From a virus: a stretch of 64,000 nt of DNA. The DNA lies in IMG/VR virus record IMGVR_UViG_3300035698_019437, positions 62,001 through 126,000 of that record. One strand, given 5' to 3'. The translations under genes were made by a program, and so were the position numbers. Below, in pieces: positions 5,490 to 48,488 of the stretch. Within the stretch, counting starts at the first letter, position 1. Every line of letters starts with the position of its first letter. The notes under the pieces are model-generated. The model did not search any database. It was not told where the DNA came from and saw only the letters and a program-made list of their open reading frames with translations.

Positions 5490-8400
5490 TGACATACGGG
5501 CAAACTGATCAACTTACAGCAGAAGAAATTACAAAGTTGAAAGATGGAGAAAGAGCAGATGCTGCTAATATTAATGAGATACCCGCAAATAAGCATTTTA
5601 CTAGAAACTATCAGTCTGGTAGAGTAATTATGAAATGTCTTATCAATAACTATTGTCCGACTAAAGCAGAAAACTTGATAGAAGATGGTATTGTTTTTAA
5701 TAACGATACAGTAAAAACTTTCCCAGAAGATGTTTTTAAAGACTTGTCTTTTGTTATAGGTCAACCTGGAATATACTTAAAAGAAGATTATGTATATAGA
5801 TCAAATTTCTTAGGTGTATCTCCTCTGACTACGCCCGGGATCAACACGGGTGAAGACTTGATAGATTGGTATGAACCTCTGGTAACGTTGGAGAATTATC
5901 CTCCTGATTACCTTGAACACTTTGGTTGGGTTATTCAAAGAAGCGTTTTCGATTATCCTAGTGATCTTATATATCAACCTAAACTTAGAAGGTGTAATGC
6001 CATAGGAAGTCAAAAATGTATATCAGCTAGGTGGGATTACGCGAATAAACCAAGAAATTTGGCCGGTGATGTAAGAATTCCAGATAGTGATCGTGGTAGA
6101 TATCCCACTTCTGACGAAAGACGAGATTCTAGGATAGTCTTCCCTTTTCAAAAAGCAAAGAATAAAACTAAGAAGTATTCAGGTACTCCGCCAACGTATG
6201 TGACCACTCCTGTTCATTGGAGATTAGAGAAGCATGTACCTCTTTTCTATGGAGAAGATTTTTTCATAGAGTTTATTCCTGCATCACACGAGTCAGATAT
6301 CTCTAATGTTAAATCTACAGCTTTCCATTCTTATCCAAGGCCACAATATAAGGCGTTAGATGTGTATGCAAATGTTGATTTATCGGGGCCAGATGTTCCG
6401 GAGAATAATGGGGTAGTTTCTTATGAAGCAGTTTTTAAGGATGGTACAGATGAGATAGAAAAATATAAAGCTGTAGAAAGCTCCAAAGCTTTATTAGATT
6501 TTAACAAACAAGCATACTATGTAGTAGAGATTGGTGTAAATAGTCCTGACCATAATTACTTTATAATTATTACAGAAAAAAGCAACCCCACTATTGTTAG
6601 GGTTGTTCGACAAAATGGTAAATATCGTTCGTATAATTTGGGATCGTATGCTCCAATAAAAGGAATATCTTTGTTAAAAAGAAGGTCATTCCGTATGACA
6701 GTTAGAAATCATCTAGGGAAATTAGTGATCACCTTTTCTGGATACGAAAATCAACCTTGGGTTATAGAACAATTATCTTTAAGCGACAAGGATGTTAAAC
6801 TTGTTACTGTGCCAGGAGGGTGGGACAAAGCAAGAAAGGTGGATCATGGTGGCATGACAGTATGGGGAGGAAATAAACCAGCAGGCTTCATATTCGGCAT
6901 TTTACAATATCAGTCATATTATAATTTGCTTTTACCAGTATCGGATAAGAACGTATCTACTCCGGATTCTATACAAAAGAGGCAAAAATTTGAATTACCA
7001 TTTAAAGGGACATATGGCAATATTTCTTTATTGAGTGCGCAAGATGGTGGGCTAGATATAAGTATATTACCAGAAAAAACCTTAAGTGGCCCTCCTGCGA
7101 GAGTATCCAACATTATAGATGATTTTTTTGTTAATAGGAGAAAGAGAGATAAACAACCAATTTTTACATGTGATGCGCAAAGAATAGAAGAATATTCGGT
7201 AGAAGTAAAGTCCGATGGGTCAATGGGAATAAGAAAAGAACATGCTACTTCATTTGTTCCATACGCTACCTTGGGCCATGGCTTAAAAGATTTTCCCGGA
7301 AATACTGCTGTTATCTTATATGGGAAACAGATACAGGGTTTACAAATCGACATCGCTAATGAACAAGAAAATGCTTCTCTTCTGTTTAAACTTGTTATAC
7401 TTTTATCTCAACAAGACCCTATAGATCAAGTTGAAATTGAAAAAAGGTTAGCAGAAATAGAAATAGTTAATCAAAAGATCAAAAGACTTAATACGAGTTT
7501 GTCAAGTTTATTTAAATTGCAAAAAGAAATGACAGAGAATGATCCTAATTTTTCTGGAATAAATTTGTCTATGATACCAGATGTTACAAAAAGTACCGAT
7601 CAAGCCATGAAGTTTTTTGTCTATGCTCAACTAGTAGCAGGTAGTCATCCATTTGATTACAGAATTCAAGCACTTCAACGAACTGATGGTACTCCGATAA
7701 CCACCAAAGACAGAAGTTGGACATGTCCTAATTGTGTTACTCCTGTTTTGAGTAATATAAGGTTGGTTTCTTTTCCGAGAGATGATAGCGCGTGGGGTGC
7801 AAATAAAATAGATGCGAGCGACCTGGTAATGAATTTTTCAGAGACATGGACGGCTTCAGATTTTCATAAAATAGAACATACAGGAAGTATCAACTTTCTG
7901 ATTAATCCCGGAATGAGAGCAGACGAAACAGCTACAAGAGTAGAGAATCTTCAAGATAAAGCTTTTTATATAGAAATATGGGCAGGATATGGAGACTATA
8001 ACCTTACGCCTGATTGTAACTATTCTAGATTACCGGGCATGTATAAATTGTTTACTGGTATTTGTTACGGAGGAACCATAACAAAAGAAGCAGGTAAAAG
8101 AGTTATGGAATCTCAGATTTATGATTATAGTAAGATTATAGAAGATCAACTGTTTTTTAATTCTCCGTTTTTTGATGGTATGAGAGATTTAAATGCAATA
8201 AAAACGATGGTTGAGCTATCAGGAATAAAAGATAAAAAACTGTTTGATCCCGGATATCTAGTTAGTCGTGCCGCTGAACACAAAGGAAATGATTACCATA
8301 GAATTCCCACTCCTGATGGCAGGATGTTTAAAGCTAAGCCTTACGCCTTGCCTGCTTCATATCAAAGATTGACTCAGCCATTCTTTAGATATGAGGATGG

Positions 8401-9097
8401 AAAATCTATATGGGAAGGAATGCATGATTTAACGGTACGTTCAGGCAAGGTTATATTCTTTGATGCACACGGTATGCTCCATTATGAAAGTTTGCCATTT
8501 GATACATATTTGTTTGGTAAAGATAGTATAGAAAAAATTAAGAAAGATTTGACTTTATGGTATTTTACTAGCGCGCCAGATGATTATGGTCAACAGATAT
8601 TTAATACTTTTACAATACAGGCTAGCATGGAAGATGTTATTAATAATATTCATGTTATGACTAGTACTCCTGATTTTGAGTTGGTTATTGCTGATGATAT
8701 TAATAAAGAATCTATACAAGACCCATCAAAATCAGGTTTTTTGGGATATAGAAAGACATACTTACAACAAGATGGTATATTTGGAAGCGTAAAAGCTTTA
8801 GCTAATCTTATTCAGCATTATCAAAAGCTGTATGTTCCTCCTGCCGTAGCATCTTTTGAGTCATACGGGTTGCCAATGCGGTGTTTCGACTTAGCTATTG
8901 TTGAAGGTCAACCTTTGATAATAACGAATATATCATCAGAAATTGATCCATCTGCAAATAAATGGTGGCAGACAGTAGAAGGCGAATGGTATCAACCTGC
9001 TGGATTTAGTGAAGGCGGCAATCTTAGTAGCGTACCTAGTTTACCCGCACCGACTACTCAATGGCAGGGCTTCGCTCGTCCAGGTACTGATTCCTAA
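5489..9097 (+). CDS. Putative baseplate hub / tail protein
   Basis: A 1202-residue protein starting in TAATG overlap with the previous gene. The N-terminal half is not recognised. A predicted coiled coil lies at about residues 650-685, rich in Lys, Glu, Leu and Ile at heptad spacing. A CPNC motif lies near residue 746. Residues about 780-1150 read like the hub proteins of contractile or long-tailed phages (gp27/gpD-like): a stretch with IEIWAGYG, then a Gly-rich strand around LFTGICYGG, then a segment with GKVIFFDAHGMLHYES. I base the hub assignment on this pattern and on the tail-gene context, so it is an inference. A structural search of the last 450 residues would settle it. It is followed by a small gene 18 bp downstream. 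Confidence 0.6.
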   Translation: MTYGQTDQLTAEEITKLKDGERADAANINEIPANKHFTRNYQSGRVIMKCLINNYCPTKAENLIEDGIVFNNDTVKTFPEDVFKDLSFVIGQPGIYLKEDYVYRSNFLGVSPLTTPGINTGEDLIDWYEPLVTLENYPPDYLEHFGWVIQRSVFDYPSDLIYQPKLRRCNAIGSQKCISARWDYANKPRNLAGDVRIPDSDRGRYPTSDERRDSRIVFPFQKAKNKTKKYSGTPPTYVTTPVHWRLEKHVPLFYGEDFFIEFIPASHESDISNVKSTAFHSYPRPQYKALDVYANVDLSGPDVPENNGVVSYEAVFKDGTDEIEKYKAVESSKALLDFNKQAYYVVEIGVNSPDHNYFIIITEKSNPTIVRVVRQNGKYRSYNLGSYAPIKGISLLKRRSFRMTVRNHLGKLVITFSGYENQPWVIEQLSLSDKDVKLVTVPGGWDKARKVDHGGMTVWGGNKPAGFIFGILQYQSYYNLLLPVSDKNVSTPDSIQKRQKFELPFKGTYGNISLLSAQDGGLDISILPEKTLSGPPARVSNIIDDFFVNRRKRDKQPIFTCDAQRIEEYSVEVKSDGSMGIRKEHATSFVPYATLGHGLKDFPGNTAVILYGKQIQGLQIDIANEQENASLLFKLVILLSQQDPIDQVEIEKRLAEIEIVNQKIKRLNTSLSSLFKLQKEMTENDPNFSGINLSMIPDVTKSTDQAMKFFVYAQLVAGSHPFDYRIQALQRTDGTPITTKDRSWTCPNCVTPVLSNIRLVSFPRDDSAWGANKIDASDLVMNFSETWTASDFHKIEHTGSINFLINPGMRADETATRVENLQDKAFYIEIWAGYGDYNLTPDCNYSRLPGMYKLFTGICYGGTITKEAGKRVMESQIYDYSKIIEDQLFFNSPFFDGMRDLNAIKTMVELSGIKDKKLFDPGYLVSRAAEHKGNDYHRIPTPDGRMFKAKPYALPASYQRLTQPFFRYEDGKSIWEGMHDLTVRSGKVIFFDAHGMLHYESLPFDTYLFGKDSIEKIKKDLTLWYFTSAPDDYGQQIFNTFTIQASMEDVINNIHVMTSTPDFELVIADDINKESIQDPSKSGFLGYRKTYLQQDGIFGSVKALANLIQHYQKLYVPPAVASFESYGLPMRCFDLAIVEGQPLIITNISSEIDPSANKWWQTVEGEWYQPAGFSEGGNLSSVPSLPAPTTQWQGFARPGTDS

Positions 9098-9339: not shown

Positions 9340-10959
9340 ATGGCAGGTTTGACTCCTTATTATAAAATGGCGTACTTCGACTTTGGAGATGAGTTAGACA
9401 CTCCGATTAATATGCAAAAAGAAGTTGATAGATTTACGCTAATTGATAGGCAAATATTCGGGATGTACCAAATTTTTGGTAACGGTGTTATAACTGGATG
9501 GCAAGTGTATGATAATGGGTTCACTGAAGAAACTGGTATAAGTATCGGCATAACAGAAGGAAGTGGAGTTATAGATAGTATCTCCGCTGTCACGAATTTT
9601 CCTGATCGTATCGACGGGCTTATCCCCAACACTACTACAGATATCTATGTCGTATTGGTAGCTTCTACAGTCACTGACAGACTTCCATCTTTTGTTTTAG
9701 CAACACCAAATTCTGTTTTACCAAATACATCTACTATGCTGAAGATAGCTTCTGTTACTACATCAGATAATGGTATATTATTACTAGATAATACGGTAAG
9801 AGAGCTTATAACTTTTCAACAGATTATTCAAGATACTGTAGATGATCATAAGCATCGTGGAGAACCCACAAAAATAGACCTTGAAAAAGAAGTTAAAAAC
9901 CAACTTCCCGGCGCTAGAATAGAAAATTTCGATGCATCTAAAATAGAAAACGGTAGAGTCGATAGAGGAAGAATACCGACTTTAGATCATACAGAACTAG
10001 ATAATGTGGGTATTTTAACTCATGCATCTTTAGACAGTTTCATACAAGCTATTACTGTTCCTAATTTAGGTTTGTTAGGAGAAGTTGCTACTGTCAATCT
10101 TCTTAGACAAACGATATTTTTGAAATATAAATATCCTACAGTAGATAATTACTTTGTGAACGAGTTGGCTGTATTGCCGGGTATATCTTTAGATTCTCAA
10201 ATAGATTTTAATGCAAGTACGGCTGTTATAGATATAATTTCTGGGTGTATCGCAGGATTCCCGTTTGCAGATACAAGTGCTTACTTCTTTACTAGTAATT
10301 TTTCTTTATCTAACAATGTTATAAGAGGTATTCTTACAAGCAGAATTACTACCCCTAACAGTTCAACTGTACAATTTGGAATCAATACAACAAATTCAGT
10401 TGATTTTGATAATGATTATGAAGTGATAACCGAAAATTCTGTGTTTACACTGGATCAACCAGGCGAAAATCTTAGAGTAGGTATCAAACTTGTATCAGGA
10501 ACAGGGTCTCATAACCCGTACGCTGTTAATTTTACAAACTTCGTAGACTTTGTGTTTGTTAACGAATCTACATCTTCGGCCACGTTCCATTTTAGAATTA
10601 GATTTTATAATGATGAGTTTTTGACAGATTTATTTACTACGGCATACAGCGGTAGTGATCAAGAGGGTTGGGTAATAGATGACAAATATGATATTCCGTT
10701 AATAGGATATACGGTTGGTGCAAGTGATGCTATCAACGTTTCATATTACCCAGACTTGTCTACGTTTGTGCAAGACAAAGTATATTATCTAACTATAGAT
10801 GCTTTTGACGGGTCTTCGTTTGTATCTGAATCATCTGGTTATACTTTTGTTTCAGGCGGAAGTACTACATGTGATCAATATTCTAATTTGCCAACTGTTA
10901 AAAACTTTGCTTTGATATTTGAAATGGAAAACGGAAGCAAGATAATGCTTAATCTATAA
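9340..10959 (+). CDS. Tail-fibre/baseplate-associated protein with shared N-terminal module
   Basis: A 539-residue protein. Its first ~130 residues hold a pattern also present at the start of the next gene: a D-R-F-x-x-I-D-x-Q segment, then G-V-I-x-G-W-x-V-x-D-N, then a G-x-G-x-I-D turn. I read this as a shared domain that may attach the two proteins to the same part of the virion. The middle (about 165-235) is charged and helical and includes DDHKHRGEP. The C-terminal half looks like beta-rich fibre sequence with many Ser, Thr and Asn. It overlaps the next gene by 1 bp (TAATG). The structural role is inferred; no named family is certain. Confidence 0.65.
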   Translation: MAGLTPYYKMAYFDFGDELDTPINMQKEVDRFTLIDRQIFGMYQIFGNGVITGWQVYDNGFTEETGISIGITEGSGVIDSISAVTNFPDRIDGLIPNTTTDIYVVLVASTVTDRLPSFVLATPNSVLPNTSTMLKIASVTTSDNGILLLDNTVRELITFQQIIQDTVDDHKHRGEPTKIDLEKEVKNQLPGARIENFDASKIENGRVDRGRIPTLDHTELDNVGILTHASLDSFIQAITVPNLGLLGEVATVNLLRQTIFLKYKYPTVDNYFVNELAVLPGISLDSQIDFNASTAVIDIISGCIAGFPFADTSAYFFTSNFSLSNNVIRGILTSRITTPNSSTVQFGINTTNSVDFDNDYEVITENSVFTLDQPGENLRVGIKLVSGTGSHNPYAVNFTNFVDFVFVNESTSSATFHFRIRFYNDEFLTDLFTTAYSGSDQEGWVIDDKYDIPLIGYTVGASDAINVSYYPDLSTFVQDKVYYLTIDAFDGSSFVSESSGYTFVSGGSTTCDQYSNLPTVKNFALIFEMENGSKIMLNL

Positions 10960-13900
10960 TGCCTATATCTACTAAAAAATATGGTTTGATTGCCTTCACC
11001 GATGGTGATGTATATTCTGCTGCTTCAGATAAAGAACGTTTTGTAATCATAGATAATCAACTTGCATCTCTTGCAGATTTAATTACAGACGGCGTTATAG
11101 ATGGATGGTCTGTTGTAGATAATAGTACTACATCTACACTGTCTGTAAAAGTTACGTCTGGCCTTGGATTAATAGATCGCAACATTACGAGAACTTTCCA
11201 ATCATTTTATGTTGATATAACAGATAACACTACTTTGTATGTTTATATGCAAAGAAAAAGAGACTATATAGCATCCTTTAGCCCGTTTTCTGAAAGGGCA
11301 AGCGTTATTTATGTTGATGCGACACCTCCAGATATGCCAACTGGACTTCATGCCGCTAGAACTATATACAGCTCTATTACGATAGCATGGAATAACAACA
11401 TAGAACCTGATTTATCTTATTATTCTATAGAGAAAAGTATAGATGGCGTGGTGTTTGCAGAAGTTTCTCAAGAGACTGATCCTATCTATATAGATACGGA
11501 TGTCAGCGACAACACGACATATTCTTATAGGATTATAGCTGTCGATAATAGTGGTAATAACAGCGTCACTTCTGCTGTTGTTACAATTACTACTCCTGTT
11601 GATACAACGTCACCAGTAAATCCATCGTTCTTGTTGGTTTTTGTAGGCGACGGTCAACTAGAATTAGTTTGGGAAACTCCTAAAATAGGCAGCGTTTCTT
11701 ACTATGAGGCAAGAGTTCAAAAGTTAGATGAGCAACATCAAGAGACTGGTTCTATATCTGTCTACACCGCAGATTCTATTGCTACTAATCTTTTTATGTT
11801 GGGGCTTGATAATGAGACATCGTACAAAGTTGAATTCTATGTAGTGAATCCAAACGGCGTAAAGTCTCCTGGTCTAGTAAAGATAGCAACTCCTGTATCT
11901 AACATTGGACCGCAAGAAATAAGTGACTTGACAATATACGATTTGCAAAGCAGTGTTTCTGAAAACGGTGTGTTGTTGAACATTTCATTTATTCCCGGAA
12001 TAGACCCATATAGAACATTCGCAGATGTTTTTATAATTACATTAATAGAAAACGGGATAACTACATCTGATGAGATTATTATAACCAACTCTAATGCATT
12101 AGAAATATCTTTGTTTAACGTTGACGGATTAATAAGTCCTATTTTACCAAGAACTGATTATATAATTAAAGTTCAAGGTAGGGATTCGGATGGGAATGTC
12201 AATAATGGCGTAGTTGGAAGAATAGAAACTAGGAATTTTGTTTCTCCTGCATCTCCGAGTAACCTGAACGTTGTTTCATATTTTGATAATGGAATACATT
12301 TTTCATGGACGAATAGTGTAGATATATTTAATCACAATACAATAACTGTTATAAAGCAGAATACATCTACCGGTGCTCAAACGGTATTAGAAAATTCTAC
12401 TAATATAGGTAAAGCTGCATCATATGTTATTACCAAAGAAAACATTGAAGGTAATTTTACTTATTCTATACAGTTGTATGCAGTTGATGAATATGAAAAT
12501 AGAAGCAGTACTGTTTCTAAATCACTAATTGTCGAAGCGTTTGAAGCTCCTGATATACCTTTAGAACAATTTGCTTTGTCAGGTGTTGGAAGTGTATTTT
12601 TGGGGTGGGAACCAAGAAATGATCAGCCAACAGAGTATTACAAAATATGGAGATCAGATTATGACGAGAGATCAGTTACTGCTAGTGATTTTTCTCTCAT
12701 CGATACCATCCCTGGTTCATTAACATCATATACGGATTATACTGCTGAGCTTGAATCTAGATACTACTATTTCGTAACCGCTGTTAGCAAATTTGGTGGA
12801 GAATCCCTCAATCCAATAGACGATGAGTTTTATTATTATGACATGATTTATGCTTTTGGCGGATATTCTCATACAACAATACAGCCCGGTGGAATGGCTG
12901 CTACTAATTCAGGCGTTGCAGATGATTTCGATATTAGTCTGTCATGGGATGCTCCTGATAACGCAGAGGCTTTTGATGGATATGAAATATATAGGTCAGA
13001 TGGCAACACTTATGCATGGGAGAAAGTAGATAGCGTTGATAGGTATGAAACAAGTTATACAGATATAGACGCTGCAATAGATAGCCAGACTTACTACTAT
13101 ATGGTAAGACAGTTTAGAGATGAGGCGAGATTGTTTGTATCTACATCACCCTCCGCGCCTGTTGATTCTGTTGTATTAGCAAAAGTAACAACTACTTTAG
13201 GTCTAGTTACTGTAGATTCATCTGTATCTAATCAACTTGCACAATGGAGAGACCCACTTTTAGATTATATCAATGAAAAAACTGATGAGCATCAACACAT
13301 ATTTACTACAGAAAAAGACCGAAGAATCGATCTTCGAGAAAATGTAGTTATTACTGAGTGGACTACACTAGATAATAAGAAATATGGCACTGTACAAGAT
13401 TTAACAGGCGCTACTTCATACGTTGTTAAAGTCGATGGCTCTTTGCCTAATATGATGTATGAGGTTGATGATTTACTAGGTACAGTCATTTTTGAAAGAG
13501 CAACTGAATCTGACAATATAAGTGTAGAACTAGTTGGAGTTAATGAAACTCAGAATACGTTACCGAAAGAGAAAGTCTCCCAGGTGTTCGGTGAACAGGT
13601 TAAAGGAGACGCATTCGCCGTTGAACAGATTCCGATCTTAGACCATTTAGGTAGAACGGTTGAAGAGCTTGTTCCTGTACAGTTAAGAATGCAGACTTCC
13701 GATGGCTTTAGGTTTACAATTGCACAAAATAATTTTAGCGATGTTGATGAAACAGTAGGAACTTCTGTTACGTTTTATCAAGTAATGCAAGCGATTGTAC
13801 CAAATCAGGTTGAACTTTGTTGGGAAGATTTGATATTTCCAGAATGGGATGACCTTCTTTTTAACGAATGGTCTAAATTCCCGTTTGATTGTTCTTCATC

Positions 13901-16862
13901 TACCCCTACAGGAGATGTATATATACTGATTGCGGCGACAAGTTGGGGAATTTTATCTAGTCTTGATAACGGAACAAACTGGGTTGTTTCTTTTATAGGA
14001 GATGGCCCGATCCATGCTTTATATTTTGCTCCTGTATCTAGTAGATACTATGCTCTAGGTAACGATACTGTATATTTGAGTTATAACGGCATTACATGGG
14101 TAAGGACCAACAAAATTGAGAACGTATCAGCAGTTAGAGATATAGTTGAAGACTCGTCTCAAAATATATTTATCAGTACGAATTTGGGAGTCTATATACT
14201 AGAACCTGGAGACGTGGGAGATTATCTGGATTGGCAGCAGACAAGATTGATCGGTGCGACAACTTCGGACTGTTATGGACTTTGGTTAGATTCAGTTGGG
14301 AGTAGACTTGTAGTAAGTACGGAAATTGGATTGTTTGAAACTAATAATAATGGCATAACGTGGTCTTATACATCGGAGTTTGATGAAGAACAACCTATAT
14401 ATCAGTTCACAGAAGATAGCGGCTTTTTGTTTGCTTTGACGGACGGAGAAATCTGGAGAAAAGTCGCAGCTAATAATTCAGATAATCTATTAAAAGTTGG
14501 AGACCTGAATTCAGATGTATCCAGAAAATTTGTGATTTATGACAGTCATCTTATTATTAACAGCAATGACGGTATAAGAGTTTCCAGAAATAATATACAC
14601 AGTAGTAACGATGTCCAATTTGACGAAGATGCCAGCGATATACGATTTGCTGCTCGTAAGACAGAAGTTACATCCATAGACGTTGTTAATTCTATATTAT
14701 ATATAGGTTCTGACGAACACTTATTCAGTGGAACAGACATAGATGATATGTCTATTTTATATGAAAATCTCAACGGAAAGACTCCTACGGTTTACGTTAA
14801 TGGAGAAAGACAGGTGCTGGGATTCGTATATGATACTACTAATAACGTTATTTCATTCAGCAGATTGATAGATGAAGATGCAGAAGTATTGGTAGCTAAC
14901 CAGTATCAGCTTTATCGAGCTAAAAATGGCGGCTGGATTGATCAAAAATATATTGAATCTGTTAGCGTCCTGCAAAATAAGATACAGATTACTTCCGTAA
15001 CCGGCGCAACTAGTGGTCAGTTGGTTTCATCCTTCACGGAAGTTGTATTTCCTACGTTCGATGAAACAAATTCAAATAGCGAAACCGCTACTCCTTTGAG
15101 TCAAGAATATTTGGCAGAGGTACAAAGATTTCAAGATATAATCGCGGGTACAGAAATACTTGATGATGACGAAACATTGCAAGATGTAGCATCTAATATA
15201 GTTGGTCTATATAATGAAACGTATTCCCAGTTTTTAGGGCAAATTCGTTTTATATCTCTGATCGAGTATGATGATAATGATTATACTTTAGTAGGATTTG
15301 AGAGAGTATTGTCTACTTTAGATGATACGTTGTTATCTGATTATACTTTGGTAGATCATATTCCCAGCGTAGAGATAATACAGGAAGATGTTGTTCAATT
15401 GAACATTGTTGACGGTACTACACTGTTTACCAGCACTTTTGATAAATATGATGATTTAGCCATAAGTATAACAGGAACAACATTTAATGTTGATATGGTT
15501 TATTCTCATCAGGAAATAGATGATAACATAGAACATATAAATTCAGGTTTACCAGCGTCTGGTTTGGCTATAGCCTCTGACTCTAATCTTGTAAAGACTG
15601 GGTTGTTCTTCGAAAAGACATGGCCTGTCGCTCAGGAATCTGATAAAGATGAATGTTGTGGTAATGTGAAGCTATATCCTCCTTTGCAAACTAGTTACAT
15701 TATCCCTCGTGACAAGGCATGGTATGATACATTAAATTCTACGATTGACTATACAGAACATGTAGATTGTGGAGATTTGGGACTTTCTGTTAATTATCCC
15801 AATGCAGTTTTGTATATTCCAGAAGTTAGCAAGGTTTTCGTTGGTTCAGAATCTGGACTTATTTCAGTAAGTACAGTAAATTATGAACTATCTGTTGAAG
15901 CGTTTAGCACATGGAGCTACGAAGAACCTGTTCGTGATATAGTAAGATCAGGAGATGTGATTTATCTTCTTACTAAAGATAGATTGTATTCAAGTACAGA
16001 CTTTGGTGTAACGTGGGAAAAACAAAATATGAATAATTTGTCTCGCGATTTCTTAGCTTTTGCCATAGTCAGAAATACCAAAGTTATAGCTGCAAAAGAT
16101 GGAGTATATTATCTAAATAATAGTGTAGACGAATGGACTAAGGTATTCAAGTTTGGAGCAGATGGAGAATTACCAGCAGATTTTAATCAAGATGGTAAAG
16201 TAGATGTTTATGATTTGGCTGTTATTTCTAATAATTGGCTTGGAACCGATAAAACATTTTCTCAAGGAGACGCGAATGGAGATGGAGTTGTCAATCAATT
16301 AGATTTAAATATACTGAATGCATATTATGGTAGAGCAGACGCTTTTCTTTCTAATAAAGAAACGTCATCAGTAATCTTCTTCAACTCAAATAACTTGTTC
16401 ATGATAGTAAACAATGAATTGTATTATTCGGTTGACGGTATTCATTGGTCTTATGCAGGAAGTTTTGGAACAGTAGTTGTCGGTGATATAATCAGATATA
16501 GAAATAATATGGTTTTGGCTACGGTAAGCGGATTAAGATATGATGGAGGTTCATTTTTCAGCAGTTCCGTAGTTACATCGGTTGTAGATTTGCTAAATGA
16601 TTTAACCCAATCTTCATCAATGGAGTTTAATGCAGTAGCTGTGAGTGGAGATGGGACTGAGTTTGTTTCTGGCATGGCAAATGGAACTATCTATTTATTC
16701 GATAATGGTAGCTATATTCCTAAAGATTTATGCGTAACAGGTATGTCTACAATTCATAAGATAATTTATGTTGGTGATGAATTTTGGGCATTTGGACACG
16801 ATAAACTAAGGGTATCTTCTCTTGTTTATCCGATTACACTTAAGACGGGTGTACCTTTTTAA
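10959..16862 (+). CDS. Giant tail-fibre-like protein with FN3, Asp-box and dockerin modules
   Basis: A 1967-residue modular protein. Residues 1-120 share a module with the preceding protein. About six fibronectin type III domains follow (roughly 123-213, 214-315, 318-428, 428-528, 529-618 and 645-730), with the usual late strand around Y-S-Y-R-I-I-A-V-D. Asp-box-like motifs ending in T-W or H-W lie near residues 1001, 1040, 1128, 1678 and 1823, suggesting VPS10/BNR-type propellers. At 1741-1791 there is a two-repeat dockerin-like calcium-binding module between propeller parts. FN3 and propeller domains are common in phage proteins that touch host glycans. It lies head-to-tail with other virion genes, so it is probably a receptor-binding fibre. 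No catalytic site is visible. Confidence 0.75.
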   Translation: MPISTKKYGLIAFTDGDVYSAASDKERFVIIDNQLASLADLITDGVIDGWSVVDNSTTSTLSVKVTSGLGLIDRNITRTFQSFYVDITDNTTLYVYMQRKRDYIASFSPFSERASVIYVDATPPDMPTGLHAARTIYSSITIAWNNNIEPDLSYYSIEKSIDGVVFAEVSQETDPIYIDTDVSDNTTYSYRIIAVDNSGNNSVTSAVVTITTPVDTTSPVNPSFLLVFVGDGQLELVWETPKIGSVSYYEARVQKLDEQHQETGSISVYTADSIATNLFMLGLDNETSYKVEFYVVNPNGVKSPGLVKIATPVSNIGPQEISDLTIYDLQSSVSENGVLLNISFIPGIDPYRTFADVFIITLIENGITTSDEIIITNSNALEISLFNVDGLISPILPRTDYIIKVQGRDSDGNVNNGVVGRIETRNFVSPASPSNLNVVSYFDNGIHFSWTNSVDIFNHNTITVIKQNTSTGAQTVLENSTNIGKAASYVITKENIEGNFTYSIQLYAVDEYENRSSTVSKSLIVEAFEAPDIPLEQFALSGVGSVFLGWEPRNDQPTEYYKIWRSDYDERSVTASDFSLIDTIPGSLTSYTDYTAELESRYYYFVTAVSKFGGESLNPIDDEFYYYDMIYAFGGYSHTTIQPGGMAATNSGVADDFDISLSWDAPDNAEAFDGYEIYRSDGNTYAWEKVDSVDRYETSYTDIDAAIDSQTYYYMVRQFRDEARLFVSTSPSAPVDSVVLAKVTTTLGLVTVDSSVSNQLAQWRDPLLDYINEKTDEHQHIFTTEKDRRIDLRENVVITEWTTLDNKKYGTVQDLTGATSYVVKVDGSLPNMMYEVDDLLGTVIFERATESDNISVELVGVNETQNTLPKEKVSQVFGEQVKGDAFAVEQIPILDHLGRTVEELVPVQLRMQTSDGFRFTIAQNNFSDVDETVGTSVTFYQVMQAIVPNQVELCWEDLIFPEWDDLLFNEWSKFPFDCSSSTPTGDVYILIAATSWGILSSLDNGTNWVVSFIGDGPIHALYFAPVSSRYYALGNDTVYLSYNGITWVRTNKIENVSAVRDIVEDSSQNIFISTNLGVYILEPGDVGDYLDWQQTRLIGATTSDCYGLWLDSVGSRLVVSTEIGLFETNNNGITWSYTSEFDEEQPIYQFTEDSGFLFALTDGEIWRKVAANNSDNLLKVGDLNSDVSRKFVIYDSHLIINSNDGIRVSRNNIHSSNDVQFDEDASDIRFAARKTEVTSIDVVNSILYIGSDEHLFSGTDIDDMSILYENLNGKTPTVYVNGERQVLGFVYDTTNNVISFSRLIDEDAEVLVANQYQLYRAKNGGWIDQKYIESVSVLQNKIQITSVTGATSGQLVSSFTEVVFPTFDETNSNSETATPLSQEYLAEVQRFQDIIAGTEILDDDETLQDVASNIVGLYNETYSQFLGQIRFISLIEYDDNDYTLVGFERVLSTLDDTLLSDYTLVDHIPSVEIIQEDVVQLNIVDGTTLFTSTFDKYDDLAISITGTTFNVDMVYSHQEIDDNIEHINSGLPASGLAIASDSNLVKTGLFFEKTWPVAQESDKDECCGNVKLYPPLQTSYIIPRDKAWYDTLNSTIDYTEHVDCGDLGLSVNYPNAVLYIPEVSKVFVGSESGLISVSTVNYELSVEAFSTWSYEEPVRDIVRSGDVIYLLTKDRLYSSTDFGVTWEKQNMNNLSRDFLAFAIVRNTKVIAAKDGVYYLNNSVDEWTKVFKFGADGELPADFNQDGKVDVYDLAVISNNWLGTDKTFSQGDANGDGVVNQLDLNILNAYYGRADAFLSNKETSSVIFFNSNNLFMIVNNELYYSVDGIHWSYAGSFGTVVVGDIIRYRNNMVLATVSGLRYDGGSFFSSSVVTSVVDLLNDLTQSSSMEFNAVAVSGDGTEFVSGMANGTIYLFDNGSYIPKDLCVTGMSTIHKIIYVGDEFWAFGHDKLRVSSLVYPITLKTGVPF
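16179..16331 (+). other. Type I dockerin-like domain inside the 1967-aa tail protein
   Basis: Residues 1741-1791 hold two 22-residue repeats seven residues apart. The first reads DFNQDGKVDVYDLAVISNNW and the second starts GDANGDGVVNQLDLNILNAY. Each has the D-x-N-x-D-G-x-[VI]-[DN]-x-x-D-[LF] calcium-loop pattern followed by a short helix, which is the signature of type I dockerins. In cellulosomes these bind cohesin modules. The domain lies between Asp-box repeats, not at the C terminus where cellulosomal dockerins usually sit. Confidence 0.85.
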
Positions 16863-16874: not shown

Positions 16875-17867
16875 ATGGCAAACATTTATGTAGATGGGGA
16901 GCTAACGACTGGTACCAATAACGGTGGTTCTTGGGCTAACGCATATCAAGGGAATGTTGGATTACAAGCAGCATGCGATGCTGCTGTGGCAGCAGATATA
17001 TTAAATTTGGCTAGAACATTTACTTTGGCGGCTCTTATAGATATAGACCAAACATCGGGTACACAGCTTAGCCCCATACGAGTAATAGGCTATAATTATA
17101 ATTCAGGTTCTCCTATTGTAGATGGCACGTTTTCTACTTTAGACGGAAACAGTGCTGTTAATAATTGTATATTAGCTAACAATATAGATAATTGGATTTT
17201 TGAAAACATCGAATTCAAATACGCTAAAGACGATAATGCAGGAGTAACTGGAGCGGCTTGCAAGCACTGGTCTTTTATAAATTGTCATTCTCATCACGCT
17301 TTAGGTACTCAGTTAAATACTGGTGATGGGTGGGGAGGGTCTGGTACTACAGCTTTTGATAATGTTGCATACGTTTTATGCCAAGCATATTCCAATGCTC
17401 AGCATGGTTTTTTGGGTTATCATGCCGCGATGTTTGGTTGTACTTCACACGATAATATTGATGATGGATATTCTGCGACATACTCTATGTTTAATAATTG
17501 TATAGCTTATAGCAACGGAGATCACGGTTTTAAGTTGAGTGGAAACGAAAATCTTTTGGTTAATTGTGTATCGGATGGTAATGCAGACACTGGTGTATAT
17601 GTAGATGATGGTCCTTCTGTGTTGGCGGGTTGTAGGATAACAAACAATACTTGGGGTATAAGAGGCGATGCTTCAGCTACCGTCTTAGACTTCTATAATT
17701 TCCTTCAAGGCAATACTGTTCCTACTATTAATTGTACTGTTATTTCCACTATTAAAGGGCAAAATACTCGTACAACGACGGGTGATGAGGGATATATAAA
17801 TCGTGCTGCCGGTAATTTTGGATTGTTAGATACTGCTGCGGCTCGTCGGATGGAGGTACAGTTGTAA
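16875..17867 (+). CDS. Parallel beta-helix tailspike-like protein
   Basis: A 330-residue protein with a GGGAG ribosome binding site before the ATG. From about residue 60 to 290 there are repeated short strands ending in N-C, N-N or G-C turns (for example NNCILANN, WSFINCHSHH, FNNCIAYSNGDHGF and LLVNCVSDGNADTGVY). This is the PbH1 pattern of right-handed beta-helix proteins such as pectate lyases and phage tailspikes. The start (MANIYVDG, then GGSWANAYQG) matches the usual entry to such helices. No lyase or hydrolase active site can be named with confidence. It ends in TAATG overlap with the next gene. A role in binding or cutting a surface polysaccharide is inferred. Confidence 0.8.
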   Translation: MANIYVDGELTTGTNNGGSWANAYQGNVGLQAACDAAVAADILNLARTFTLAALIDIDQTSGTQLSPIRVIGYNYNSGSPIVDGTFSTLDGNSAVNNCILANNIDNWIFENIEFKYAKDDNAGVTGAACKHWSFINCHSHHALGTQLNTGDGWGGSGTTAFDNVAYVLCQAYSNAQHGFLGYHAAMFGCTSHDNIDDGYSATYSMFNNCIAYSNGDHGFKLSGNENLLVNCVSDGNADTGVYVDDGPSVLAGCRITNNTWGIRGDASATVLDFYNFLQGNTVPTINCTVISTIKGQNTRTTTGDEGYINRAAGNFGLLDTAAARRMEVQL

Positions 17868-18833: not shown

Positions 18834-18896
18834 ATGTTAGATAGAAATATGATTATCAAACCTTTCATTACCCTCATGGAGTTGTTTATCAAATGA
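18834..18896 (+). CDS. Possible 20-residue leader peptide
   Basis: A short frame (MLDRNMIIKPFITLMELFIK) has an AGAGGGA ribosome binding site about 7 bases before its ATG and ends in an ATGA overlap with the start of the 2686-aa gene. The 2686-aa gene has no clear ribosome binding site of its own in the bases just upstream, so translation may be coupled through this leader. It is too short to judge by coding statistics, so the call rests on the ribosome binding site and the overlap. Confidence 0.4.
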   Translation: MLDRNMIIKPFITLMELFIK

Positions 18897-21800
18897 GTTT
18901 TACTACATATTGGTATAATTTGTGCATCAGTCAATGGGAAACCCTTACATGGGAAGAGTGGAACCTGATGCAGTTTGTACAAAATATTTCAACAATTAGT
19001 ACAATATCAGACCCTCCTACTTATTATTACTATTATTTGTATAATTTACAGCACGGCGATCTTACTAGTGATAAGTGGTATTTGATTGACAGCAAGAAAC
19101 ACGCATATAAGATATATTCTGATTTTGATTCCCTAGATGAAGATAATGAAAGAATTTTAACGCGATCTGGAACTCAGCAGACGGAAGAAATAAATGTATT
19201 TAGCGACAAAAGCATACAACTTATAAATACGAGAATAATTGCTGATTCGATTGGTGGAGAAGATATAGAGCTTAGATTACCGAATAAACTAATCGGAATG
19301 GTATTCGATAAAAGCGGTAGTGTATTATGGAATGATGCAGACGAATTAAGATATACTTTAGCCAAAAGGCTGATTAATCGCTTGTCTGCCACGTATCCCG
19401 GAACTTTAGAATATAGCATATTTAAGTACGGTGGACAGCCTCTATCTTTGTTGTTTACAGGGTATATAGAAGAGGAAAATCCGTTTGATAATCTTCCAGA
19501 GTCAGAACCATGCTGGCCACAAGACCCATTCGTTGATGCGGTTAACAATTTTTCTGGATTCCGAATTCTTAGAAAAGAAGGTAGTCCACCAGCAAGTCCT
19601 ATAGATGGAGAGATTATTTTTGATGGAATAGTAAATAAGATACTAGATGTTGGATTAACTGATGGGACGACATATTACTACAAAGTCTTTACGTTTGATG
19701 AAAATTATTTATTCAGCGATGGAGTTGTTGTAAAGGTTGTTCCTAAAAGAGCAATTGTTCCAGATGGAATACCTATTTTTGAAAGTGAAGTCCTAAAAGG
19801 TACCGGCATTGTAGTAGATGAATATGTTTCAAGCGTATGGCATTTAGATGAAGAACAAGAACAGACTGTATATGATTTCAATGCTCGTACAGATTTGACA
19901 ATAACTGATGCAGAACCTAGATGGTTAAATAGTTTAGATGTTCCTGTAGGAATCGCTGGTTTAAGATTTGACGGCATAGCTACTGCTGCGTCTAGTACAA
20001 ATTCACAGGATTTAGCTCTTTCATCGAGTTCTCAATTCACATTTATGGCATGGGTCAATCCTTACACTATGTTGAATGATGAGGTTATTCTTTCTAGATG
20101 TGAAGATGTGATGGTAGCACCTAGACTTAATTATATATTCTTTATTAATGGGGCAAATGGTAGACTTGGGTTACAAACAAGCTATGCTGTGGGCGATGTG
20201 GTTTATTCGAATGCTAATGTATTGTCGGAAAACCAGTGGAATCACGTTGCTTGTACTATAGATGAATCAACTGGCGCGGTTATCTTTTACGTCAATGGAA
20301 CACCAGCCGGTGCTGTTACTCTGGGTACAAATACTGTGGATACAGGAGATTTACAGTTTTTTATTGGGTACTCATCTTTAGTGGCACACGAAAGGTTCTT
20401 TGGAGAAATAACCGAAGTAAGCGTACATAATACTATAAGAGATTTAATATACATAAATCGTTATGCTACTATTTCAAGTAGAACTGATCAAGATAACGGC
20501 GATAGGTTAGTAGTCCTTAAATATACTGTATATGATGATTTCAACTTTTCTGGCGGAAGAGTTCGAATAGTTCAGAAAGATTTGAGTTTACCTTCTAATG
20601 AGTTAGACGGAAGCGTTATATATGATGTTGCAGCAGTAGCGGGAAATTATTATACGACTTACAGAGATAATCTACTGTTAGGTTCTACTGAATACTTCCG
20701 CATATTCTCTTCTAACGTTATAGGGAACTATAGTGATATACGAGATTCAACGTCTATAGAAACGGTTATTACAGATATGAGTGATGAAGCTAAAGAACAC
20801 ATCACTTCTTTGGTTTCTCCATACGATGTTCCAAACAATATTACAGTGTTGCCAGGCAATAGAAAGATTTATGTTAATTGGGATAATACTATATGGAATA
20901 CTAATATAGTTAGAATGAGATTATATTCTTCCCCTGATTCTTTTCCTGTAGTAGACGATATGGGTAGCGATGGAGAACTTATATTCGAAGGCATCATTTA
21001 CAGTGATACCGGTTATGTAGACAGGGGTTTGATTAATGGAAGCAGTTATTATTATACGCTAGTGGGTATAGATAGATATAATCGAGTTTCTGTAGCAGCT
21101 AATTCATCATCTACGCCATCTATATCTGCAAATGAAGTTGGGATACCGCTTCTAGAGGTTGAGTCTTTAAGCTACGAACTAGTTGATGCTAATAGTATAA
21201 ATTTGTTTTGGAATAATCCTATAACGAGTAGAACTGTAACTGCATACTTTGCACAGGATTTAGTATTTTATTCTTCTATACGAGATGAATACGGAGACAC
21301 GGTAACAACTGATTTTGATGTGTCTATAGAAACAGATGCATCTTATGAGTTATACGAAGATGCTGCTGAAAACATATTTGTAGGTGAAACTGAGGTTAAT
21401 AGTCCGGATGTAGAAGATTTATATCAGTTTATACTGTCTGATCCTATTGATGAAACGGTTAAGGCAACATTCCAAACTGCTGACGATACTTCTTTATTCG
21501 AAAATATTAAGAGTTTAAGGATAGAACTTAAATTACAGATTTCTTTACCTAATCAAGGTGGTACAGGAGAAGTTTTTGAATATAGTTCTTTGCCAGTTGT
21601 GATTGAATGGCAAAATCCGATAGAGTTTGATATTATAAATAGAGACTCTAAGCATGTTATAGAATCGTGTAAAAAGACTATAAACGTTTTAGATAATCAG
21701 GTTGTAGAATCCAAAAAACAGTACGATGGTATTTATGTAGGAGCTAGCGAGCCTTATGTTGCTAAGCTTTCTGCTACGTACAGAGGAAGCAGCTTAGTCG

Positions 21801-24800
21801 GTTATTTGACTTCTACAGTAGGGGTTTTTGATTCAACAGTAGATTTGTGTTCTGGAATATTACCAGTTACAGGAGATCAAAGTACAACTGTTAGTTTTTC
21901 TGATATAAACCAAACTTCTGAAGATGAATTTACTTTAAGGAATATAGAGCAAGAGGTTTTGAATGAAGATGGTAATCCTTCTGATGTAGATGAAGGTGTA
22001 TTAATTGCAAATGTCGATATGTTTTCTCCTGATTTACCAGAAAATACGATGCTGTATGTTTCAATCAATCATGGTGGGTTTGTTGTCGTTAAAAAAATCC
22101 AAATCATTTTTGGCAATCCCCTTAAAATAGAGATATCTCCAAGAACTTTAATACCAGATGGCATAGACAGAGCAGAACAGTCTGCTTTAGTATATACCGT
22201 AGACCCAGATGACCCAGAAAATATAAACAGCAGAACTACTCCAACGGATAATACTGTTGTTAGATGGTCGTTGGATGCAAAATCAGAGCAAGCTATTCAA
22301 AGATCATTCTACTCAGAAGATTTGGTTCCTATCTATGATGGTGTGTATTCATATACTACGGATGGAGTGGCAAAGAATGTATTCTTTGGACCCGTAACTG
22401 ATGTTAATACTCCTGATTACGATGATGATGGTAATCCTATATTTGAACAATATGAGATTACAGCATCTATAATAAGTGATAATATCGTAGTTACCGATAG
22501 CTATAACTTTGATTTGGTTCCAATAGCATATCTTGGAAAACAAACGGTTTCGTCTTACTTCTTAATGGAATTCCAGAATTTCCAAGAAAAATTCTGGTCT
22601 GATGGAAGTGATTATGTTCGTATGCTTGTTACTAGCGATGCATCTTCGTCTAATACAAAATACTCTAGTTGTTTTCGTGATTGTATGAGCGAAATTGGGA
22701 AAACCATTTATGCTCTACAGCCGGGGCAAAAGGTTAGAATTGATACAGATGATCCAGATGTAGAAATTATTTCTGGAGATGTTGTAGAACATATAGACCC
22801 CTATACGGGACAAAAATGGTTAGATACTTCTAATGCTGTTATATCTACAGGATATGGATATGTAGAAATAGAAAAAGATGGAAGTACATATGTATACTTC
22901 AGATTGAATAAATTTTTAGATGAACAAAGAACTATAGGATTCTCTAGGATCAAGCATAATAGTTGTTCTTGCTTAGGACTTATAAGAGAGGCCAGATACT
23001 TCAAAGAAGTAGTTGTGACCGGATCAATAACATCTGTATTCGATGAAAAGGTTGTAACGCTTCGATCTGGTGGAGATTATGATGATGGCATTCCACCAAC
23101 AATCATGATTCCGAAAGAACCTCTGGAATTGATTGTAGCAGACAAACGAATAGGGAATGTATCTATCGAGACATTCTTGGTTGACGGGGTAAGCGAGAAT
23201 AGCTTTATCACGTATGTATCTTTTGCTGGTTTGCCTGTTCCAGATGGAACTATTATTACTCCGCAAGTTTTAAGTCTATATGATGAGCTTGTTCAAACGC
23301 AAGAAGATTCTATAAACACAAGTCTGTCAATAGACTCTGCCGTAGATTCTGTTGCAAGAAGCTATGCGGAGTTGGCTTTTGAAGCAACTCCACAAGGAAA
23401 AACCTTCTTGTCTCAGGTATATATGTCTGTTTCATATAATAGAGTCGGCAGCGTAGATAGAACGGTTACCAGATGCGTGGAAATTTCGTTTGATGCCGAA
23501 GATGTTAAGAACAGTCCATCTGTTACTGCGATTCCAAGCATATTTAGCGATAGAATTCAAGCTTCTGAAATAGGCGTAGCACCAGCAACGTGGGTTGATT
23601 TGGCGAATATGGCTTATCCTAGAGGCCATCTGTCAGTAGAGGTTATAGGTAATAAAATATATGCCATCGGAGGCATTGATGGTAAAGAAGTTACCAATCG
23701 AGTAGAACAATATGATCCTGCTGCGGATACTTGGGCTACCATGACAACAATGCCAACGGCTAGAATGGGAGCTGTCTCTGCTGTTGAGGGTAACTACATA
23801 TATGTATTTGGTGGAGTAGTATATAATCGTATAGATAATTCTCTAGAAATTTCTCAAGTTGCTGAAAGATATGATACTACAGCAGATAGTTGGGAAACTC
23901 TAGATTCTATGCCTTCTATTATCGCTGGGACTATAGACCCAGTTACTTATGGAAACGCCTACGGCGTGGCACATAGCGACGGTAGTAGGGTCTATGTAAC
24001 TTCTGGTGTAAGGTTTATTACTGAAGACGGTTTAACAATAGACCATAATGATAGGGTCTTCTATTACGATATAGCATCTGATTCGTGGGGATATTCTGAT
24101 ATCATCGCGGAAACTGAGTTAGATAACTACTTAAGAATTGGGCCAGCTAGTTTTTTGGATGGAAACCAGATTGTTGTATTCGGCGGTGCATGGCAAAACA
24201 GTTCACAGCTTCTGTTTATGCTTACAGATGCATACACGTATGATATAACAAACGGAGCTTTAGCAAAATCAGAACAAAGGTTTGATGTAAATGTTGTACC
24301 AAGATATTTCGTTGCTTCTGCATCATCCTCGCCAGAACATTTTGCTTTGGCTGGTATCGGTAATGATTCATTTACTCTTAGAACCTTTGAGCAGATTACA
24401 GATGGTGGACCTGGCGTAAATCCTATATACGATCTGGCAGAATATGATACGACTGTTAAAGCTAGGAACGGAGCAGGCGCAGCTATCATATCTATTGCTG
24501 GTAGCGATTATGTAGCTTTGGTTGGTGGTATGGAGAGCGGCAAAGGTTCTGGCTTTTTAAAAATATCTTCTAACATGTATCCAGATAATATAGAGTTGAA
24601 TGCTCATCAGCACGCCCAATATAGAACAACATTAACGGATGAAGCTGGCGAAGAGCCAGTGAGTAATGTCGGTGTAGCTTCTAAGGGATATGTTCAAGAC
24701 AAAGACAAGTCAGGCGTTTTGCTTCCTATTCTTGAAGATGCTTTGACGAGATATCATGTATTGCTTGCAGACGATTCTGATACATCGAGTGATGGTCAAA

Positions 24801-26984: not shown

Positions 26985-27776
26985 ATGTACATTATAAATA
27001 TGAAGCAGTATTATGAGATTATAGTAAATCCTAAGCAGGATGCATATCTTAACATAGTTGTTTTGTGTCATAACAACGTCAAAGTTACGCAAGATTTTTT
27101 GCGCCTTCTGTATAGGAATACCCCATCGGATGCATTCAATCTTATGATGATAGATAATGATTCTTCTGATTCAACTCCAACATTTTTGTCTGAATACTTG
27201 AAAGAAAAAGACAATGCTACTTTAGTACTTTCTAAAGAAAATTTAGGTGTTGCAGGTGGCAGAACGTTAGGATGTAACCTGTGTATGAAACAGAGGATAC
27301 AACCAGAGTTTGTTATGTTTATAGACAACGATCAATTCGTATTAGAGGGTTGGCTAGAACAACACATTGGAGTTATGGGGAGAGGTTACGATCTGGTAAG
27401 CGTAGAAGCATGGCAAATGGATAATAAGTTTTTCCCAATCAAGAAAAATACGCATTTATCTGAACATTTCGCTTATGTGGGAGGGGGAGGCATGATAATA
27501 CGTAGGAATGTGATTGAGTCTCTTGGTATGTTTGATGAACAATTTTATCCAGCATACTATGAAGACCCTGATTACTGTTTTAGAGCATATGACGCTGGAT
27601 TCAAAATAGGATGGAATATAAAGTCAAAAATAGTGCATATGGCTCACCAGACTCTTGGAGCTAATCAGCAGGAAAAACAAAAAGTCTTTCTTCGCAGTTG
27701 GAAAAAATTTAGGGACAAGTGGAAGAACAGAAAGCTTCCTACTATAAGGCAGATAGATTTGCCGGAATTTAAATGA
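26985..27776 (+). CDS. Family 2 glycosyltransferase
   Basis: 263 residues with the GT-A fold pattern of GT2 enzymes: an early LNIVVLCHNN strand, MMIDNDSSDST, then ENLGVAGGRTLG, then the metal-binding D-x-D in FIDNDQF. An acceptor-side GGGGMIIRR and EDPDYCFRAYDAG follow. GT2 enzymes move a sugar from a nucleotide donor to an acceptor. The start could also be the ATG at 27000; no strong ribosome binding site separates them. It opens a three-gene sugar-transfer cluster and its stop overlaps the next start (ATGA). The target (virion, host surface or DNA) is not shown by the sequence. Confidence 0.85.
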   Translation: MYIINMKQYYEIIVNPKQDAYLNIVVLCHNNVKVTQDFLRLLYRNTPSDAFNLMMIDNDSSDSTPTFLSEYLKEKDNATLVLSKENLGVAGGRTLGCNLCMKQRIQPEFVMFIDNDQFVLEGWLEQHIGVMGRGYDLVSVEAWQMDNKFFPIKKNTHLSEHFAYVGGGGMIIRRNVIESLGMFDEQFYPAYYEDPDYCFRAYDAGFKIGWNIKSKIVHMAHQTLGANQQEKQKVFLRSWKKFRDKWKNRKLPTIRQIDLPEFK

Positions 27777-28918: not shown

Positions 28919-29648
28919 CGTTATAACAACTTTATACAATTGCGAGAAGTATGTTCGTGAATCTCTGGAATCAATTGTAGAACAAGATTTCAAAGATTTT
29001 GAATTTATCATAATTAATGATGGTTCTACTGACGCTACTTGGGATATTGTAGAATCCATAAAAGATGATAGAATAAAGCTTTACGACTATAAAGACAATA
29101 AAAGAATTCCTACTAGAAGGAATCAAGCTATAGATTTTGCGAAAGGCAAATACGTCGCTATCCACGATGGTGATGATATAAGTATAAGAGGTCGATTGAC
29201 TGCTCAAGTAGAAAGTCATGAGAGTTACGATAATTTGTTTTGCTTGGGTGCTCATGCCGCTAAAATCAACGTTGAGGGAGAAACCACTGGGTTTATGACA
29301 TACCCTCCAGTCAATCATGATAATATTGTGAGATCGTTTTTACGTAGTATGAATCCCATGATAGACCCGACTACAATGTTTAAGAGAGAGGACTTTCTAG
29401 AACTTGGGGGCTATACATTGGACAAGAGTATTTATACGGTGCCAGATTTGCATCTGTGGACAAGAGCAGCATTGAAGGGATTGAGATTTCATAATATCCC
29501 TATATCGCTGATAAAATATAGGATCAACCCAAATGGTGTTACTAGGAGTCATGCCAAGGAAATGCAATCAGCACATAGCAGGGTACTGAGAGGGTATTTC
29601 GAACAGTTTATTAAGCAAAATAAGATAAGAAATGCGAGGAAACGCTGA
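28902..29648 (+). CDS. Family 2 glycosyltransferase
   Basis: 248 residues overlapping the GT4 gene by 17 bp in another frame. The first 100 residues are textbook GT2: VSVITTLYNCEKYVRESLES, FIIINDGSTDATW, a conserved RNQAIDFAKGKYVAIHDGDD with the D-x-D metal site. It is more similar to capsular and LPS glycosyltransferases than the first GT2 of the cluster is. The C-terminal part is basic (KQNKIRNARKR). Its stop and the next start share a base (TGATG), so the three transferases and the phosphoesterase look co-translated. Confidence 0.85.
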   Translation: MKPLVSVITTLYNCEKYVRESLESIVEQDFKDFEFIIINDGSTDATWDIVESIKDDRIKLYDYKDNKRIPTRRNQAIDFAKGKYVAIHDGDDISIRGRLTAQVESHESYDNLFCLGAHAAKINVEGETTGFMTYPPVNHDNIVRSFLRSMNPMIDPTTMFKREDFLELGGYTLDKSIYTVPDLHLWTRAALKGLRFHNIPISLIKYRINPNGVTRSHAKEMQSAHSRVLRGYFEQFIKQNKIRNARKR

Positions 29649-48487: not shown

Positions 48488-48488
48488 T

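What the first reader, a model, noticed from the sequence alone, without database searches (positions are those of the whole stretch)
16179..16331. Type I dockerin module inside a phage tail protein
Two calcium-loop repeats of dockerin type lie inside a 1967-aa fibre-like protein with FN3 and Asp-box modules. Dockerins normally plug enzymes into cohesin scaffolds on cellulosome-forming bacteria. On a virion it could anchor the particle to a host cohesin, join two virion proteins, or act only as a calcium-stabilised linker. The sequence pattern is direct; the role is inferred.
Basis: partly seen in the sequence, partly recalled or inferred. Interest (0 to 1): 0.85.

Follow-up and report, generated by a model that had tools for sequence, protein, structure and literature searches.

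The report
Dockerin inserted in phage tail protein
A large phage has inserted a calcium-binding docking module (a dockerin, usually found on secreted bacterial proteins) into the side of a tail protein; its closest relatives lack it there, and one carries a different dockerin in the next large tail gene, which suggests phages pick up these modules to hold on to something outside the virion.

Summary
Residues 1740-1789 of a 1967-aa protein score 38.5 bits for Pfam Dockerin_1 (cut-off 22.9), both calcium loops are complete, and the predicted fold's best PDB matches are all dockerins (best TM 0.64/0.72). The protein belongs to a tail-tip cluster conserved in synteny in other uncultured phages. 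The dockerin is a clean in-frame insert of about 65-69 residues between two strands of a C-terminal beta-propeller. All four homologues that span the site lack it, so it is not needed to build this virion type. One of those relatives carries a different dockerin in the neighbouring giant tail protein, where the other homologues lack it, implying at least two separate gains in one phage group. Dockerins also occur in phage endolysins and in large proteins on jumbo-sized phage contigs. No cohesin was found in this record or in 20 other viral records. The closest cellular dockerins found are from Planctomycetota; two were read, and both lie before PEP-CTERM-like tails, not in cellulosomal enzymes. 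Best reading: an accessory, surface-exposed, horizontally gained adhesion module, probably binding a cohesin or similar ligand on the host or its matrix. Binding partner and host are unknown. No published phage-tail dockerin was found.

The parts
10959..16862 (+). 1967-aa tail-tip/fibre-like protein (P0001): N-terminal domain, FN3 repeats, two Asp-box/propeller regions
   Evidence: syntenic homologues L131, L134, L136, L137
16152..16358 (+). lineage-specific in-frame insert (P0001 residues about 1732-1800) absent from 4 of 4 homologues
   Evidence: GC3 0.116 against 0.270 expected from its amino acids and the gene's codon usage, P = 0.0012
16176..16325 (+). Dockerin_1 (PF00404) domain, residues 1740-1789
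   Evidence: AlphaFold2 model and PDB fold search
16179..16214 (+). calcium loop 1, DFNQDGKVDVYD
   Evidence: sequence
16269..16304 (+). calcium loop 2, DANGDGVVNQLD
   Evidence: sequence
15726..16859 (+). C-terminal beta-propeller region that carries the insert between a blade's last strand and the next blade's first strand
   Evidence: AlphaFold2 model, Foldseek hits to beta-propellers
11337..11585 (+). best FN3 repeat, residues 127-209
9340..10959 (+). 539-aa conserved tail-cluster protein just upstream, used to find relatives
5489..9097 (+). 1202-aa conserved tail-cluster protein
16875..17867 (+). 330-aa tail-cluster protein downstream
   Evidence: 43% identity in L136
17867..18817 (+). 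316-aa tail-cluster protein downstream
18893..26953 (+). 2686-aa tail protein (LamG, Kelch propeller) whose homologue in relative G003 carries an independently inserted dockerin

Best explanation
It is a genuine two-repeat dockerin with complete calcium loops, gained horizontally and carried as an accessory domain on the distal propeller of a tail-tip protein. Shown: dockerin sequence and predicted fold, complete calcium loops, clean insertion into a propeller that relatives build without it, and a second independent dockerin insertion in a neighbouring tail protein of a relative. Inferred: the insert is displayed on the virion surface, and its selected role is to bind a cohesin or cohesin-like partner on the host envelope or extracellular matrix (reversible capture before or alongside the main receptor), with specificity changed by swapping dockerins. 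The closest cellular dockerins found are non-cellulosomal, Planctomycetota-type modules, so the target is more likely a non-cellulosomal cohesin system than a cellulosome.
For: Profile hit above the curated cut-off. Model pLDDT 77.5, with the 18 best PDB matches all dockerins or dockerin-bearing chains. Insert absent in L131, L134, L136, L137. Independent dockerin at another site: G003 carries one (36.3 bits) in the homologue of the 2686-aa protein, absent from five other homologues and from the window's own copy. Unusual third-position composition of the insert. Placement between propeller blades. Parallel dockerins in phage endolysins (CHAP and GH25, 46.7 and 53.6 bits) and in a family of about 800-1340-aa proteins on contigs up to 459 kb. 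Cohesins are present in 7 of 18 genomes that hold near-relative dockerins. Non-cellulosomal cohesin-dockerin systems are described in freshwater Planctomycetes, ANME archaea and Cloacimonadota (PMC6461901, PMC9012536, PMC8542988).
Against: The host is unidentified and no cohesin partner is known. Many Planctomycetota dockerins have no demonstrated cohesin partner. Two dockerins in tail proteins among about 28 related records is a small number. The model of the full propeller has low confidence in the insert (pLDDT about 20-30), so exposure is inferred from the insertion site. Virion localisation rests on synteny.
Confidence: 0.5

Rival explanations
1. The insert is a calcium-stabilised spacer or loop ornament. 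It folds as a dockerin but binds no cohesin; it was captured by chance or only stiffens or shields the propeller.
For: No cohesin in the record or in 20 other viral records. Relatives carry the protein without it. The closest cellular dockerins found come from Planctomycetota and the two read lie before PEP-CTERM-like tails, a context with no demonstrated cohesin partner. Single dockerin-like loops also occur inside GH108 endolysins, where a structural calcium role is plausible.
Against: Whole two-repeat dockerins were gained at least twice in different tail proteins of one phage group, and dockerins recur in lysins and jumbo-phage proteins. Both calcium loops and the dockerin fold are intact.
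Confidence: 0.3
2. The dockerin joins two virion components by pairing with a phage-encoded cohesin (a virion assembly joint).
For: Dockerins normally act by pairing with cohesins; an undetected, highly diverged cohesin cannot be excluded.
Against: No PF00963 match in the record or in 20 other viral records. The joint is absent from four syntenic relatives.
Confidence: 0.06
3. The dockerin binds a carbohydrate or another non-cohesin ligand of the host surface, acting as a generic adhesin.
For: The neighbouring modules are adhesive (FN3, LamG, Kelch). PMC10066038 suggests non-cellulosomal dockerins in a giant Omnitrophota protein may act as adhesins.
Against: The best-established ligand of dockerins is cohesin; no ligand data exist here.
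Confidence: 0.12
4. Assembly chimera or contamination placed host dockerin DNA inside the phage gene.
For: The insert differs in GC3 from the rest of the gene and the record is a metagenome assembly product.
Against: The insert is in frame in a 1967-codon ORF with alignable flanks on both sides, at a boundary between two strands, and a comparable in-frame insert exists in G003.
Confidence: 0.02

Closest known systems
Planctomycetota-type (non-cellulosomal) type I dockerins on secreted proteins, two of them seen before PEP-CTERM-like tails
   Same: Two repeats, short linker, similar motifs (for example NFDGTDTPYTFAQGDFNGDG against NWLGTDKTFSQGDANGDG); 47-56% identity among the better matches; 13 matches at E <= 1e-7 in 4 of 392 Planctomycetota genomes, against 0 of 395 and 1 of 398 in the two other phyla sampled
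   Different: The cellular ones read are C-terminal on secreted proteins; this one is inside a phage tail propeller
Cellulosomal type I dockerins (for example 2y3n, 6kg9, 2vn5)
   Same: Fold and calcium loops
   Different: No catalytic module and no scaffoldin in the record; the residues at loop positions 10-11 and 17-18 differ between the repeats (VY/SN against QL/NA), so the symmetric dual-binding mode is not expected (inference)
NagH dockerin (2ozn_B), a non-cellulosomal dockerin whose cohesin partner is on NagJ
   Same: Dockerin outside a cellulosome; fold match TMq 0.60 and a sequence match to the same molecule
   Different: Attached to a bacterial glycosidase, not a virion protein
Accessory Ig-like/FN3 domains that move between phage tail proteins (general knowledge)
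   Same: Optional, horizontally spread modules on tail proteins
   Different: This module has a known high-affinity protein partner class (cohesins) and needs calcium
Phage endolysins with C-terminal dockerin (L034, L093 and others, this study)
   Same: Dockerin above the Pfam cut-off on a phage protein
   Different: A lysis enzyme that acts from inside the cell, not a tail protein

Membership tests
Dockerin type I (PF00404) | Profile score above the curated cut-off | tested here: met
   38.5 bits against 22.9; 42 bits in the genome search
Dockerin type I (PF00404) | Two F-hand repeats with calcium ligands at loop positions 1, 3, 5 and 12 | tested here: met
   DFNQDGKVDVYD and DANGDGVVNQLD
Dockerin type I (PF00404) | Dockerin fold (loop-helix pairs) | tested here: met
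   Model pLDDT 77.5, helices 19-30, 49-58 and 62-67; 18 best PDB matches all dockerins or dockerin-bearing chains, though no Foldseek E-value is below 0.001 for this short chain
Dockerin type I (PF00404) | Calcium-dependent binding to a cohesin | not testable with these tools
   Host unknown; no binding data
Cellulosome component | Dockerin attached to a polysaccharide-degrading enzyme, with a cohesin scaffoldin in the same organism | tested here: not met
   Pfam finds no catalytic domain in the protein and no cohesin in the record
Phage tail-tip/fibre protein | Encoded in a conserved tail gene cluster | tested here: met
   Phage_tube_2 protein upstream, long tape-measure-like ORF, synteny with related contigs
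Phage tail-tip/fibre protein | Present in the virion | not testable with these tools
   Uncultured virus, no proteome
Virion assembly joint (phage cohesin-dockerin pair) | A cohesin encoded by the same phage | tested here: not met
   PF00963 absent at E <= 1 in the record; the record may be incomplete

The most novel reading that the evidence does not exclude
Phages use the cohesin-dockerin interaction for adsorption. They capture host-type dockerins onto tail proteins and lysins so that virions or enzymes dock on cohesins displayed on the envelope or matrix of bacteria with non-cellulosomal cohesin systems, and they change specificity by swapping dockerin modules between tail proteins.
Probability: 0.35. 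Interest if true: 0.85.

Novelty: new variant of a known kind. Interest (0 to 1): 0.6.

Why it matters
If the module binds a host cohesin, it would be a high-affinity, calcium-dependent attachment mode that I have not found described for phages. It would also make dockerin type a readable host clue in uncultured phages. Even if it does not, the finding shows that dockerins move repeatedly into phage tail and lysis proteins, which I did not find described in the papers I could search.

Tried and rejected
Direct search for close relatives of the 1967-aa protein and of the dockerin in viral contigs found none. Relatives were reached only through other proteins of the genome. The host could not be identified: the conserved 539-aa tail protein was found neither in the genome contigs nor in 392 Planctomycetota genomes, and the window has no tRNA. 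A mixed alignment of propeller and dockerin rows (A6) misplaced the propeller homologues in the dockerin columns and was not used for structure. A literature search for dockerin with phage, endolysin, virome, jumbo phage or auxiliary metabolic gene found no phage tail dockerin. The two near misses were a BLAST remark on gene 40 of Vibrio phage VvAW1 (PMC3558961) and a carbohydrate-binding-module match in an E. coli phage (PMC5967307). Peer et al. 2009, the review of non-cellulosomal dockerins, is not held in the library.

Full report
Observation. The ORF at window 10959-16862 encodes 1967 aa. Pfam gives fn3 (43.3 bits, three stretches) and Dockerin_1 PF00404 (38.5 bits against a cut-off of 22.9, residues 1740-1789, window 16176-16325). 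A genome-wide search gives the same place at 42 bits and no other dockerin in the 147,268-base virus record of which the window is bases 62001-126000. The double loop motif occurs at 16179 and 16269 in one frame and never in 100 shuffles. Both loops, DFNQDGKVDVYD and DANGDGVVNQLD, carry D/N/D and D at positions 1, 3, 5 and 12.

Fold. AlphaFold2 on the 69-residue insert with 29 dockerins from fetched loci gives pLDDT 77.5 and helices at 19-30, 49-58 and 62-67. Foldseek against the PDB returns dockerins or dockerin-bearing chains for the 18 best matches (2y3n_B, TM 0.64/0.72, probability 1.00; 2ozn_B, the non-cellulosomal NagH dockerin, probability 1.00); E-values are weak (0.03 and above), as can be expected for a short chain. 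Sequence search of the PDB also returns mainly dockerins.

What the carrier protein is. The record holds a Phage_tube_2 protein (L005:15201-16136), a long tape-measure-like ORF and then the run of large ORFs that includes this one and its neighbours. The same order (1202, 539, 1967, 316, 2686 aa, and the 330-aa protein in L136) is kept in related viral contigs. I therefore take it as a tail-tip or fibre-like protein; no virion data exist. The first 110 residues resemble the N-terminus of the 539-aa neighbour (cross-matches of P0001 to the 539-aa homologues of relatives in L136, and L183), which suggests a shared attachment domain at the N-terminus and a distal C-terminus. This last step is inference.

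The key comparison. Four relatives have a homologue that spans the dockerin site: L131 (39% identity end to end), L134, L136 and L137. All four lack it: P0001 residues about 1732-1800 face a gap while both flanks align. The C-terminal region is predicted as a beta-propeller of four-stranded blades, and the insert falls between strand 1725-1731, the last of one blade, and the strand that starts near 1804, the first of the next (beta-propeller matches). The insert itself is poorly predicted in that model because the homologues have nothing there, so its exposure is inferred from position. The third codon positions of the insert are 11.6% G+C, against 27% expected from its amino acids and the rest of the gene (P = 0.0012), which fits a recent arrival but does not name the donor.

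A second gain. A dockerin search of 11 related records found a full one over the cut-off in G003, the record of L134: a different dockerin (SGDLTGDGSVDSADFATLISYYGTNGATLAEGDLDGDGAITVKDMIIMAAQWYK, 36.3 bits). It interrupts the homologue of the window's 2686-aa protein between residues 1348 and 1358, where the window's own copy and those of G001, G002, G005, G006 and G446 run through (28 bits in the Pfam scan of the fragment). So within one phage group two different tail proteins have each gained a dockerin. Among 17 further related records none is over the cut-off. The 548-kb relative G007 has a single dockerin repeat in a secreted-looking metallophosphoesterase.

Dockerins in other phages. Among these, read as protein, are endolysins with a C-terminal dockerin (CHAP, 46.7 bits; GH25 with LysM, 53.6 bits; both matching PHROG endolysin families), and a recurring family of about 800-1340-aa proteins with a mid-protein dockerin on contigs up to 459 kb. 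None of the latter is homologous to the present protein outside the dockerin. Some contigs in that list are probably cellular, so no frequency is claimed. In 50,697 deposited phage records the dockerin itself gives no significant match (best E 0.3), and the whole protein matches no PHROG family at E <= 0.01.

Where the dockerin comes from. A seed search of genome contigs returned 19 loci, led by Planctomycetes. A sampled comparison gave 13 matches at E <= 1e-7 in 4 of 392 Planctomycetota genomes (best E 4.1e-11, 47-56% identity among the better ones), none in 395 genomes of the phylum of the Lewinella genome (G039) and one in 398 of the phylum of the Clostridia genome (G033). Planctomycetota genomes can hold many candidate dockerins, so they have more chances to match, and the centre genomes were chosen on the strength of an earlier hit. 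The two best that could be read end in two dockerin repeats followed by a PEP-CTERM-like tail, not in cellulase architecture. Cohesins over the cut-off occur in 7 of 18 genomes that hold the near-relative dockerins. Published non-cellulosomal cohesin-dockerin systems exist in freshwater Planctomycetes (the proposed 'planctosome', PMC6461901), ANME archaea (PMC9012536) and Cloacimonadota (PMC8542988), and dockerins have been suggested as adhesins in an Omnitrophota giant protein (PMC10066038).

Mechanism. No cohesin was found in the record or in 20 other viral records, ten of them relatives, and relatives make the protein without the module, so an intra-virion joint is unlikely. The choice lies between a binding module and a folded ornament. 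Repeated, independent gain of complete two-repeat dockerins at different sites in tail proteins of one group, and their recurrence on lysins, is what selection for binding would look like; a passive ornament would not be expected to be chosen repeatedly. I give 0.5 to docking on a cohesin or cohesin-like host partner and 0.3 to a structural or neutral insert. The two repeats differ at loop positions 10-11 and 17-18 (VY/SN against QL/NA), positions I recall as recognition sites in cellulosomal dockerins, so a symmetric dual-binding mode is not expected; this point rests on general knowledge.

Limits. Host unknown; the viral records may be fragments; two tail dockerins among about 28 related records; virion location inferred from synteny; no binding data. 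Novelty is judged only against the open-access library and the collections searched.

Noticed in passing
L005:10427-11542 (G000 bases 50427-51542); also G003, G005, G007, G009, G438, G439, G442, G445: A strong match to PF25216 'Volactin' (206 bits), an actin-family protein, in the structural gene region; it is found in 9 of 13 records searched, this one included. A conserved actin-like gene in the virion gene region of a phage group is unusual.
   Followed up: partly
L011, L018, L020, L022, L025, L029, L070, L106, L114, L121 and others (jumbo-contig dockerin proteins): The tripeptide DGY is about 24 times over-represented (97 seen, 4.0 expected in 18 proteins), with varied codons, so the bias is in the protein and not a DNA word.
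   Followed up: partly
L034, L093, L110, L112 and similar loci: Phage endolysins (CHAP, GH25) with a C-terminal dockerin, full or single-repeat; the dockerin sits where a cell-wall-binding domain would be.
   Followed up: partly
window 47174-51135: DNA polymerase III alpha is encoded by two ORFs that cover adjacent parts of phrog_405, with a deoxycytidylate-deaminase-like ORF at 48653-49174 between them.
   Followed up: no
window 57061-58983: Intein/Hint and LAGLIDADG matches inside one ORF, so the gene probably carries an intein; its homologue in G001 aligns in two pieces around it.
   Followed up: no
window 42195-43127: LAGLIDADG-type homing endonuclease-like ORF.
   Followed up: no
window 26985-29648 and L007 (G000 126001-146000): Many glycosyltransferases, a NeuB homologue, a HAD phosphatase and a radical SAM protein; suggests glycan modification by the phage.
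   Followed up: no
L167:7216-8865 (-), G007 548-kb record: Secreted-looking metallophosphoesterase with a single dockerin repeat (DFNKDGSVDIVDFTMFSQHWL) in a jumbo-sized relative; a possible host-derived gene and host clue.
   Followed up: partly
L004, L005 several ORFs: Several unrelated-looking proteins start with MNWY or MNWYK, perhaps a shared N-terminal signal.
   Followed up: no
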